From Sphingobium faniae (lineage in GTDB: Bacteria; Pseudomonadota; Alphaproteobacteria; Sphingomonadales; Sphingomonadaceae), in contig FMTU01000005.1 of assembly GCA_900100475.1 (NCBI GenBank), positions 124,001-188,000 of the forward strand: 64,000 nt of DNA, in the 5' to 3' direction. This document shows, one piece after another, positions 22,373-59,572 of the stretch (position 1 is its first letter; each line of letters begins with the position of its first letter). A program made the position numbers and the translations under genes. A model generated the notes under the pieces. The model did not search any database. It saw only the letters and a list, made by a program, of their open reading frames with translations, and was not told the origin of the DNA.

Positions 22373-23149
22373 GTGAGGCGGCGACGCGCCATTCCGCGCG
22401 GATTGCGGCGGGGGATCACCCTGCGGATGGTCGCGCCCAACGCCGTCACGGCCATGGCGCTGTGCTTCGGCCTGACCGGCGTGCGCTACGGCATTTCGGG
22501 CGAGTGGGAGAGGGCGGTGCTCTCCATCCTGTTCGCGGGCGTGCTCGATGGGCTTGACGGGCGGATCGCACGGCTGCTGCGGGGCGAGAGCCGTTTCGGC
22601 GCGGAACTGGATTCGCTGTCCGATTCCATTGCCTTCGGTGTCGCGCCCGCTCTTATTCTTTATCTCTGGTCCCTGCATGCCATGCCGAAATTCGGCTGGA
22701 TTTTCGCGCTTGCCCATGCGCTGTCCTGCGCGCTGCGCCTTGCGCGTTTCAACGCCAATATCGACGCGGATGAACAACCGCATAAGTCGGCCGGCTTCCT
22801 GACCGGCGTTCCGGCGCCCGCAGGGGCAGGCATCGCCTTCATTCCCATGTATTTATGGCTGGTGACCGGGGAGCCGATCTTTCAGGCATGGTATGTGGTT
22901 GCGCCCTGGGCGGCCTTTACCGCGTTCCTGATGATCTCCAGCGTCGCGACCTATAGCTGGTCGGCGCTGCGCCTGCGGAAGCGGATCAGGCTGGAAGCCA
23001 TCGCCCTTGCCGGCCTGCTCGCCGCCCTGCTGATCACCGACCCATGGCTGACGCTGCTGGTCCTGAGCATCGGTTATCTCCTGACCATTCCCTTCGGCAT
23101 CATGTCCTATGCCCGTATCAGGCGGCAGCCATCGGGCGCGGCTTCCTGA
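22373..23149 (+). CDS. pssA: CDP-diacylglycerol--serine O-phosphatidyltransferase
   Basis: PssA condenses CDP-diacylglycerol with serine to give phosphatidylserine, the Psd substrate. The 258-residue multi-pass membrane protein contains the CDP-alcohol phosphotransferase signature DGRIAR, then eight residues, G-x3-D-x3-D in GAELDSLSD. About six to eight hydrophobic segments follow. The start is a GTG at 22373 with GAGGGGG upstream. The longer open frame overlapping psd is not coding in its extension. CdsA, which supplies CDP-diacylglycerol, is encoded 5 kb downstream. Confidence 0.93.
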   Translation: MRRRRAIPRGLRRGITLRMVAPNAVTAMALCFGLTGVRYGISGEWERAVLSILFAGVLDGLDGRIARLLRGESRFGAELDSLSDSIAFGVAPALILYLWSLHAMPKFGWIFALAHALSCALRLARFNANIDADEQPHKSAGFLTGVPAPAGAGIAFIPMYLWLVTGEPIFQAWYVVAPWAAFTAFLMISSVATYSWSALRLRKRIRLEAIALAGLLAALLITDPWLTLLVLSIGYLLTIPFGIMSYARIRRQPSGAAS

Positions 23150-23152
23150 TCC

Positions 23153-23380
23153 TCACGCCGTCAAGGCGGGGATGGCAAGGAAGGAAGCGGACGGCTGGCG
23201 CTTTGCCGGAGCGCGGCGGCGGCTGATCCGCAGGCGGTAGACCGGCGCTTCCTGCGGGATGGGTTCGAACAGCAGGGCCGCGACCATCTTGTCGCGATAG
23301 AGCGCGAACATCCCGATGATGGTGGCAATAGCCAACAGGAAGGAAGCGCAGAAAATAATCGCCGCGATAAGGGTGAACAT
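23153..23380 (-). CDS. Small membrane protein, probable SOS-induced product
   Basis: The 75-residue product has one strongly hydrophobic segment at about 3-28 (FTLIAAIIFCASFLLAIATI) followed by a basic Arg-rich tail. No known domain is recognised. The promoter region carries an alphaproteobacterial LexA box overlapping a -10 element, so the gene is probably repressed by LexA. Small SOS-induced membrane proteins such as SidA of Caulobacter inhibit cell division, and a similar role is possible here, as inference. The ATG at 23380 is preceded by only a weak ribosome site. The gene ends 3 bp from the pssA stop (convergent). Confidence 0.68.
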   Translation of the reverse strand: MFTLIAAIIFCASFLLAIATIIGMFALYRDKMVAALLFEPIPQEAPVYRLRISRRRAPAKRQPSASFLAIPALTA

Positions 23381-23394
23381 AAGCCGCTCACTTT

Positions 23395-23427
23395 CTATCT
23401 TGCCATTTGCATGGCTTGTTCCATCAT
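23395..23427 (-). other. Ten-codon upstream ORF in the leader of the small membrane protein gene
   Basis: On the minus strand ATG ATG GAA opens a ten-residue frame (MMEQAMQMAR) ending in TAG 14 nt before the start of the small membrane protein gene and out of frame with it. It may be chance or a leader peptide. Confidence 0.25.
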
Positions 23428-23467
23428 GACGGCGACAAATGACCCGAAACGGCCTTTTGTTCCGTAT

Positions 23468-23482
23468 GTTCACTATATGTTC
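23468..23482. promoter_or_regulatory. LexA (SOS) box GTTC-N7-GTTC
   Basis: GTTC, seven bases ACTATAT, GTTC matches the alphaproteobacterial SOS operator exactly. A further GTTC lies at 23459-23462. It is 88 bp upstream of the minus-strand small membrane protein gene and about 150 bp upstream of rpsB. Confidence 0.7.
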
Positions 23483-23502
23483 TAATTTGCGCGGCACGTC
23501 AA
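23472..23502 (-). promoter_or_regulatory. Promoter of the small membrane protein gene
   Basis: Minus-strand TTGACG (23502-23497) and TATAGT (23477-23472) form a -35/-10 pair with a 19-nt spacer, slightly long. The -10 lies inside the LexA box, the usual arrangement for repression. Confidence 0.5.
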
Positions 23503-23632: not shown

Positions 23633-24391
23633 ATGGCGGCTCCCATCGTCACCATGAATCAGTTGATTGAAGCCGGCGCGCATTTCGGCCACCAGACCCA
23701 CCGCTGGAACCCGCGCATGAAGCCGTATATCTTCGGCGATCGCAACGGCATCCACATCCTTGACCTGTCGCAGACCGTACCGCTTTTCGCGCGCGCTCTG
23801 GACTTCGTGTCGGGCACGGTCGCCGCGGGCGGCAAGGTGCTGTTCGTGGGCACCAAGCGGCAGGCGCAGGACCCTATCGCCGAAGCCGCGCGCAAGTCGG
23901 GCCAGCATTTCGTCAACCATCGCTGGCTGGGCGGGATGCTCACCAACTGGAAGACCATTTCAGGTTCGATCAAGCGTCTGAAGACCCTTGAAGAGAAGCT
24001 GTCGGGCGACACCCACGGCTTCACCAAGAAGGAAGTGCTTCAGATGACCCGCGAGCGCGAAAAGCTTGAAATGTCGCTGGGCGGTATCCGTGACATGAAT
24101 GGCATTCCCGATGTCATGTTCGTGATCGACGCCAACAAGGAAGAGCTGGCGATCAAGGAAGCCAACACGCTGGGTATTCCGGTCGTGGCGATCCTCGATT
24201 CGAACGTCTCGCCCGACGGCATCGCTTTCCCGGTTCCGGCGAATGACGACGCCAGCCGCGCGATCCGCCTTTATTGCGAAGCCATCGCCGCCGCCGCCAC
24301 CAAGGGCAGCCGTGGCGCGCAGCAGGCCGCGGGCGTCGACCTTGGCGCTCTGGACGAGCCGGCAGCCGAAGAGGTCGCCGCTCAGGTCTGA
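23633..24391 (+). CDS. rpsB: 30S ribosomal protein S2
   Basis: S2 binds the 30S subunit head/body junction and recruits S1. The 252 residues show the family signatures [29 protein letters not shown] split over the N terminus, [12 protein letters not shown], and [25 protein letters not shown] lies 7 nt before the ATG. The leader of about 110 nt contains small inverted repeats (around 23540-23560) that could serve in feedback control, but no known motif was recognised. It begins the rpsB-tsf-pyrH-frr gene order standard in bacteria. Confidence 0.98.
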
Positions 24392-58699: not shown

Positions 58700-59572
58700 A
58701 TGGCAGAAGAACCGGAAATCGAAACCGGCGCGGTCGACGCGCAGGAAAGCCAAACCGCAACGCCCGGCGTGAAGCTGCGCGCCGCGCGGGAGGCGCAGGG
58801 GCTGACGATACAGGATGTGGCGACCCGCACGCGCATCGCGCAGCGGCAACTGGAAGCCATTGAAAAGGACGATTATGCCGCGCTGCCCGGCATTCCCTAT
58901 GCCGTGGGTTTCGCCCGTGCCTATGCGCGCGCGGTGAATGTGGACGAAGTGGTCATCGCCGCCGAAGTGCGTCAGGCTGTCCATAATTCCGAACTGGGCG
59001 CGAACCGTTATGAAATGTTCGAGCCGACCGATCCCGCGCGGGTGCCGTCTCGGACGCTGGCATGGACGGCGGCGGTCATCGCCATCGTGCTGGTGGCCGG
59101 TTTCGCCCTGTGGCGTTCCCAGTTGCTGACCCCGCCCACGACCGAGGAAATCGCCCAGCAGGAAGAAGCTGCGCCTGCCGCGCCGCGGGATCAGGCGAGC
59201 AGCGCGCCGGCCGCGCCCGTCGACCAGACCGTGGTTTTCACGGCCAATGATGATGTCTGGCTCCGCATTTACGACGAAACGGGCGAGCGTCTGAAGGACG
59301 GCCTCATGAAGAAGGGCGAGAGTTTCACCTTGCCCGCCAATGCCCGCAACCCGATGATCCTGACCGGACGGCCGCAGGCGCTGGACGTGACGGTAGGGGG
59401 CAAGCCGGTCCCGCCGCTGGGCGCGGCCGACCGTACGATTTCCGATGTGCCCGTCAATGCCGAAGCGCTGCTCTCGCGCGCCGTGCCGCCCGTCGTCCCC
59501 ACGACGCAGGGGGCCGCCGCCACGCCCGCCCCAGCCGTGCGGTCGCCTGAAGAAACGCCCGCTGTTCCCTAG
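58700..59572 (+). CDS. rodZ: RodZ-like HTH cytoskeleton protein
   Basis: RodZ links the MreB cytoskeleton to the inner membrane. The 290-residue protein has an N-terminal helix-turn-helix domain (about 24-95; LRAAREAQGLTIQDVATRTRI, LPGIPYAVGFARAYAR), a transmembrane helix (about 119-137), and a periplasmic DUF4115 beta-domain (about 170-255; DDVWLRIYDETGERL) with a Pro/Ala-rich end. A perfect TTGACA at 58642 might be its -35, but the -10 is poor. Confidence 0.88.
   Translation: MAEEPEIETGAVDAQESQTATPGVKLRAAREAQGLTIQDVATRTRIAQRQLEAIEKDDYAALPGIPYAVGFARAYARAVNVDEVVIAAEVRQAVHNSELGANRYEMFEPTDPARVPSRTLAWTAAVIAIVLVAGFALWRSQLLTPPTTEEIAQQEEAAPAAPRDQASSAPAAPVDQTVVFTANDDVWLRIYDETGERLKDGLMKKGESFTLPANARNPMILTGRPQALDVTVGGKPVPPLGAADRTISDVPVNAEALLSRAVPPVVPTTQGAAATPAPAVRSPEETPAVP

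What the first reader, a model, noticed from the sequence alone, without database searches (positions are those of the whole stretch)
23153..23502. Small membrane protein under a LexA box: a candidate SOS-induced division inhibitor
Seen: GTTC-N7-GTTC at 23468-23482 covers the TATAGT -10 of a minus-strand promoter (TTGACG at 23502-23497). The transcript would encode a 75-residue protein with one hydrophobic helix and a basic tail. Known: this box is the alphaproteobacterial LexA site, and SOS regulons often include a small membrane protein that halts division (SidA in Caulobacter). Inference: this gene is an uncharacterised SOS effector of sphingomonads, not a homologue that I can name.
Basis: partly seen in the sequence, partly recalled or inferred. 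Interest (0 to 1): 0.72.

Follow-up and report, generated by a model that had tools for sequence, protein, structure and literature searches.

The report
Family-wide SOS-controlled small membrane protein
Next to a ribosomal protein gene, sphingomonad bacteria keep a tiny, unnamed membrane-protein gene under the DNA-damage (LexA) switch; it is conserved across dozens of genera, usually ends in the same kind of tail that marks proteins for rapid destruction, and is a good but untested candidate for the brake that stops cell division while DNA is repaired.

Summary
A perfect GTTC-N7-GTTC box covers the promoter of a 75-codon minus-strand gene between pssA and rpsB. In Sphingobium, 77 of 77 orthologues with full upstream sequence carry an exact box behind an essentially invariant TTGAC. 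In a survey anchored only on rpsB (60 genera of the family), the box is present in 41 of 43 genera that keep pssA/psd upstream of rpsB. In the same genome the motif precedes lexA, recA, imuA, radA, recG and an mmcB-like gene. LexA control is very well supported, though not shown by experiment. The protein is a new, fast-evolving family without Pfam, NCBIfam or PHROG model: one N-terminal helix, a basic tail predicted cytoplasmic, and a conserved C-terminal Ala-Ala (66/78 Sphingobium, 33/35 other genera, 7% background) resembling the host's tmRNA tag (ANDNEALALAA), so probably a degron; the window's own copy ends -LTA. Best explanation: a LexA-repressed, self-limiting inner-membrane inhibitor of late cell division that works like SidA/YneA/SosA but is not a demonstrated member of any of them. 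The division-inhibitor step is inference (about 0.55). Diverged copies without box or Ala-Ala tail sit in prophages.

The parts
23153..23380 (-). CDS of the 75-aa small membrane protein (stop codon included); helix residues 2-38, basic tail, C-terminal ALTA
   Evidence: ORF; 79 of 94 genus genomes have a homologue; pN 0.06-0.13 against pS 0.29-0.47 over the first 56 codons; AlphaFold2: one helix 2-38, block pLDDT 96-99 over residues 1-30
23468..23482 (.). LexA box GTTC-N7-GTTC (sense strand GAACATATAGTGAAC)
   Evidence: invariant half-sites in 77/77 orthologues; same motif upstream of lexA, recA, imuA, radA, recG in this genome
23497..23502 (-). -35 hexamer TTGACG
   Evidence: TTGAC 99-100% conserved per column in 77 orthologues; also just upstream of the box in nearly all other genera
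23474..23479 (-). likely -10 hexamer CATATA (17-bp spacer), inside the LexA box
   Evidence: conserved CATAnn columns; assignment is inference
23456..23463 (-). conserved GGAACAAA at the presumed 5' end of the transcript; role unknown
   Evidence: 91-97% conserved per column in 77 orthologues
23402..23415 (-). small leader hairpin GCCAU-GCAA-AUGGC before the ribosome-binding site
   Evidence: 5-pair consensus helix; one pair appears as GU, AU or GC across sequences, no strict double change
23391..23396 (-). probable ribosome-binding site AGAAAG
   Evidence: sequence; conserved in the leader alignment
23156..23167 (-). C-terminal ALTA; position of the family's degron-like (L/F/R)AA end
   Evidence: AA end in 66/78 Sphingobium-type and 33/35 other-genus proteins against 32/458 background ORFs; own tmRNA tag ANDNEALALAA
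22363..23149 (+). pssA-like neighbour, convergent, ends 3 bp from the small gene's stop codon
   Evidence: synteny
23633..24391 (+). rpsB, divergent neighbour, used as anchor of the survey

Best explanation
It is a LexA-repressed gene for a single-pass inner-membrane protein, conserved at one chromosomal site (between pssA and rpsB) across Sphingomonadaceae. LexA bound to the box covers the -10 (Sphingobium) or the spacer just after the -35 (most other genera) and blocks transcription. DNA damage -> RecA filament -> LexA self-cleavage -> expression. The protein inserts with its N-terminal helix in the inner membrane and its basic tail in the cytoplasm, and most likely blocks a late step of cell division by binding the FtsW/FtsI/FtsN part of the divisome through its helix. 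When LexA re-accumulates, the protein is removed quickly because its C-terminal (L)AA imitates the ssrA tag and is read by ClpXP or a similar protease, so division restarts. Status of steps: LexA control is shown by comparative genomics, not by experiment; the TM helix and C-terminal conservation are shown by computation; topology, degron and division block are inferred.
For: Box and gene conserved together: 77/77; diverged homologues; 41/43 genera with synteny, plus 12 of the 14 syntenic Sphingobium genomes in which the first search found no gene. The box sits on the core promoter in both promoter geometries. The motif marks real SOS genes in this genome: lexA, recA, imuA, radA, recG, MmcB-like. 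Coding constraint: pN much lower than pS in residues 1-56, and pN about equal to pS in residues 57-75 apart from the conserved end. C-terminal AA in 66/78 and 33/35 against 7% background, matching the host tmRNA tag ANDNEALALAA. One confident helix. Literature: SidA (29 aa) and DidA (71 aa, one TM) block Caulobacter division through FtsW/I/N (PMC4211646); several SOS membrane inhibitors are proposed to bind FtsW by their TM (PMC13396833).
Against: No functional data. No sequence or fold similarity to any known division inhibitor. The window's own copy ends -LTA, not -LAA, so its degron may be weaker. L184, a syntenic genus, has the ORF but no exact box, and 2 of 14 syntenic 'missing' Sphingobium genomes lack an exact box. 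No published sphingomonad DNA-damage transcriptome naming this gene was found; the Sphingopyxis TFA text passages read list lexA, recA, radA, dinG and imuABdnaE2 as SOS genes, not this one (PMC6472365, main text only).
Confidence: 0.57

Rival explanations
1. An SOS-induced membrane toxin of the TisB/DinQ kind: the helix depolarises or perturbs the inner membrane and slows growth or gives persisters, without a specific divisome target.
For: Small hydrophobic protein under LexA. E. coli DinQ is an SOS-regulated single-TM toxic peptide (PMC3567139). The leader folds somewhat better than shuffles (z -2.6) and keeps a small hairpin before the ribosome-binding site.
Against: A long basic tail and a conserved degron-like end are not part of that kind. 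The leader is short (about 87 nt). No antisense RNA gene was looked for or seen. Strict vertical conservation at one site is unusual for such toxins (own knowledge).
Confidence: 0.2
2. An SOS-controlled membrane modulator that is neither division inhibitor nor toxin, e.g. one that tunes a membrane protease, transporter or phospholipid synthesis (pssA/psd are neighbours), or acts in phage exclusion.
For: Conserved linkage to psd-pssA. Diverged copies lie in prophages between a CI-like S24 repressor and a serine integrase.
Against: Linkage may be simple inheritance of gene order. The gene is transcribed against pssA, so it is not in an operon with it.
Confidence: 0.18
3. The box serves rpsB (LexA regulation of ribosomal protein S2), and the small ORF is incidental.
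For: The box lies 151 bp upstream of the rpsB start in the same intergenic region.
Against: The conserved TTGAC and the box are oriented towards the small gene. The box-rpsB distance varies from about 130 to 390 bp between genera. The small ORF is under purifying selection.
Confidence: 0.03
4. Chance box in a short intergenic region beside a spurious ORF.
For: 1.46 such boxes are expected in the window by chance.
Against: 77/77 and 41/43 conservation; coding constraint.
Confidence: 0.01

Closest known systems
SidA (Caulobacter SOS division inhibitor)
   Same: Alphaproteobacterial LexA box GTTCN7GTTC; small single-helix inner-membrane protein
   Different: SidA is 29 aa (PMC4211646); this one is 68-111 aa with a basic tail and an AA end; no homology shown; FtsW binding untested
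DidA (Caulobacter)
   Same: 71 aa, one TM helix with short flanking domains (PMC4211646); very similar size and layout
   Different: DidA is SOS-independent (DriD); this gene has a LexA box
YneA / SosA / ChiZ (Gram-positive SOS division inhibitors)
   Same: LexA-controlled small membrane proteins thought to act on FtsW through the TM helix (PMC13396833)
   Different: YneA and ChiZ have an extracellular LysM domain; here the tail is basic, predicted cytoplasmic and has no domain
SulA (E. coli)
   Same: LexA-controlled and removed by a protease after repair (PMC13396833)
   Different: SulA is a soluble FtsZ inhibitor; no similarity here
DinQ / TisB (E. coli SOS membrane peptides)
   Same: SOS-regulated hydrophobic single-TM proteins (DinQ: PMC3567139)
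   Different: Those are short toxic peptides with RNA control; here there is a long basic tail with a conserved C-terminal AA

Membership tests
LexA (SOS) regulon of Alphaproteobacteria | GTTCN7GTTC box overlapping the promoter | tested here: met
LexA (SOS) regulon of Alphaproteobacteria | box conserved with the gene across genera | tested here: met
   77/77; 41/43 syntenic genera
LexA (SOS) regulon of Alphaproteobacteria | the same motif precedes lexA and recA in this genome | tested here: met
LexA (SOS) regulon of Alphaproteobacteria | LexA binding and RecA-dependent induction by DNA damage | not testable with these tools
   needs EMSA/ChIP and expression data
SidA | sequence homology to SidA | tested here: inconclusive
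   profile search of 240 genomes of the class found nothing convincing outside Sphingomonadaceae; SidA itself was not compared directly
SidA | length 29 aa, little more than a TM helix | tested here: not met
   75 aa with conserved region to about residue 56
SidA | binds FtsW and blocks division | not testable with these tools
   no binding or phenotype data
DidA | about 71 aa, one TM helix | tested here: met
   75 aa, helix 2-38
DidA | SOS-independent control | tested here: not met
   LexA box on the promoter
YneA/ChiZ | extracellular LysM domain | tested here: not met
   no Pfam domain; low-confidence unstructured tail in the model
ssrA-like C-terminal degron proteins | C-terminal hydrophobic-Ala-Ala as in the host tmRNA tag | tested here: met
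   family: 66/78 and 33/35 end AA, tag ANDNEALALAA; the window's own copy ends LTA
ssrA-like C-terminal degron proteins | rapid ClpXP degradation | not testable with these tools
   needs half-life measurements

The most novel reading that the evidence does not exclude
Sphingomonadaceae use a self-destructing SOS checkpoint protein: a LexA-controlled membrane division inhibitor with a built-in ssrA-like tail whose body diverges almost beyond recognition while its site, switch, helix and tail stay fixed. Temperate phages have captured it without the switch and without the Ala-Ala end, to hold host division under their own control.
Probability: 0.25. Interest if true: 0.75.

Novelty: new variant of a known kind. 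Interest (0 to 1): 0.62.

Why it matters
No SOS division inhibitor for sphingomonads came up in the literature searched, and the gene is missing from Pfam and NCBIfam and too diverged for ordinary similarity searches to link across genera. Box, position, helix and tail together identify it in dozens of genera. If the inference holds, the family gains a named DNA-damage checkpoint effector, a further case of small membrane proteins acting on the late divisome, and an easily tested example of an SOS effector whose lifetime appears to be encoded in its last residues.

Tried and rejected
Genome and viral scans with the diverse alignment A1 failed for lack of a conserved stretch; a closer alignment was used. 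Phage records gave only insignificant hits and plasmids none. PHROGs, Pfam and NCBIfam gave nothing for the protein. Fold search in PDB gave no match, as expected for one helix. 'Box belongs to rpsB' rejected: promoter orientation and varying distance. 'Chance' rejected by conservation. 'Absent in 15 Sphingobium genomes' rejected: 14 have a diverged TM ORF at the locus and 12 have the box. My first test for TTGAC in other genera used the Sphingobium spacing and found almost none; the printed rows show it lies 9-12 bp before the box there. A full structured leader was considered: only a 5-pair hairpin, without strict double changes, is supported. The second box of the window (58991-59005) has a G+C-rich centre inside an ORF and was treated as chance.

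Full report
What is there. On the minus strand, between pssA (ends 23149, convergent) and rpsB (starts 23633, divergent), lies a 75-codon ORF (23380-23153) with GTTCACTATATGTTC at 23468-23482 and TTGACG at 23502-23497. Its -10, TATAGT, has a 19-bp spacer; the 17-bp choice CATATA fits the conserved columns better. Both lie in the box.

More than chance? One box in 64 kb is not remarkable: 2 found, 1.46 expected. Genome-wide the pattern is enriched, 139 against 59 for the reversed pattern. The decisive evidence is conservation. The protein has a homologue in 79 of 94 genomes of the genus; named records are almost all Sphingobium. All 77 orthologues with full upstream sequence have an exact GAAC-N7-GAAC, mostly 96-102 bp before the ATG, preceded by an essentially invariant TTGAC. 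Half-sites are 100% conserved, whereas many neighbouring columns are near random.

Beyond the genus. A profile search found weak matches in 19 of 96 genera of the family. Those at the pssA-rpsB locus all carry an exact box upstream. To avoid choosing by similarity, I anchored on rpsB alone in 60 genomes of 60 genera. Where pssA or psd lies upstream, the box is present in 24 of 25 and 17 of 18 genera, with an ORF of the right size and an N-terminal hydrophobic helix in all. Four further genera have box and ORF without detected pssA/psd. Of the 15 Sphingobium genomes without a hit, 14 keep the synteny; all 14 have a diverged TM ORF and 12 an exact box. In 28 genomes from other families of the class, only one has a box near rpsB and none shows the pssA-rpsB arrangement. 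So this is a Sphingomonadaceae-wide locus.

Is the box a LexA site here? The genome has a lexA gene over the family cut-off and one recA. The same motif lies upstream of lexA, recA, imuA, radA and recG, an MmcB-like gene and a PA0069-type radical SAM gene. The motif agrees with the Caulobacter consensus GTTCN7GTTC (PMC12700426). Fetched sites were chosen by eye for A+T-rich centres, so this is a positive control, not a census. In most other genera TTGAC lies 9-12 bp before the box, so the box falls in the promoter spacer; in Sphingobium it lies 20 bp before, so the box falls on the -10. Both block a promoter that points to the small gene.

The protein. Residues 1-56 are constrained (pN 0.06-0.13, pS 0.29-0.47), while residues 57-75 drift (pN about equal to pS). 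AlphaFold2 gives one helix, residues 2-38, with high confidence. The tail is basic (mean net charge +6.7 after residue 30 in 35 proteins from outside the main Sphingobium set), so by the positive-inside rule the C-terminus is cytoplasmic (inference). The C-terminus is the surprise: it is Ala-Ala in 66 of 78 Sphingobium-type proteins and 33 of 35 others, against 32 of 458 background ORFs, and the host tmRNA tag is ANDNEALALAA. ORFs in the rpsB-anchored survey were picked by size and hydropathy, not by their ends. A drifting linker followed by a fixed ssrA-like end is what a protease degron would look like. The window's own copy ends -LTA, so its degron may be weaker.

Mechanism. LexA represses; DNA damage relieves; the protein enters the membrane; it is removed when repression returns. 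The most likely action is a block of late division through the FtsW/I/N complex, by analogy with SidA and DidA (PMC4211646) and YneA, SosA and ChiZ (PMC13396833). This step is analogy only. Rivals are a TisB/DinQ-like toxin and another membrane modulator.

Prophage copies. Six further matches in Sphingobium genomes lie elsewhere, lack the box and start with GTG or are truncated in the alignment. The loci inspected (L091, L093, L094) look like prophage; in IMG/VR six contigs carry relatives. In L097 the gene sits between a CI-like S24 repressor and a serine integrase and overlaps a preceding 159-aa ORF of unknown family. The prophage copies do not end in Ala-Ala. Phage capture of a host checkpoint protein would fit, but is not shown.

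Known or new. No family model matches, no solved fold matches, and literature searches found no description; the library holds only open-licence papers. I call it a new variant of a known kind: SOS-controlled small membrane effectors.

Noticed in passing
L091-L096; L097:8001-8168 and L098-L102 (viral contigs): Prophage relatives of the small membrane protein, without LexA box and without Ala-Ala end; in L097 between a CI-like S24 repressor and a serine integrase, with start codon overlapping the stop of a 159-aa ORF of unknown family.
   Followed up: partly
L246 (box at 501) and L249 (box at 1501; minus-strand ORF 1459-1220): Two boxes in the same genome stand before small soluble-looking ORFs that resemble each other (RDDxIGELAxxAxRDPxFP...), possibly a second uncharacterised SOS gene pair.
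   Followed up: no
window 23456-23463, minus strand: GGAACAAA just after the LexA box is conserved in more than 90% of 77 orthologues, though its spacing does not make another LexA box.
   Followed up: partly
window 23402-23415, minus strand: A small conserved hairpin stands before the ribosome-binding site in the Sphingobium leader; one of five pairs varies between GU, AU and GC.
   Followed up: partly
window 23149-23153: pssA and the small gene end tail to tail with 3 bp between the stop codons and no terminator-like site found between them, so SOS transcription may run antisense into pssA.
   Followed up: no
L244:1699-1713: An imuA-like gene with its own LexA box follows recA directly.
   Followed up: no
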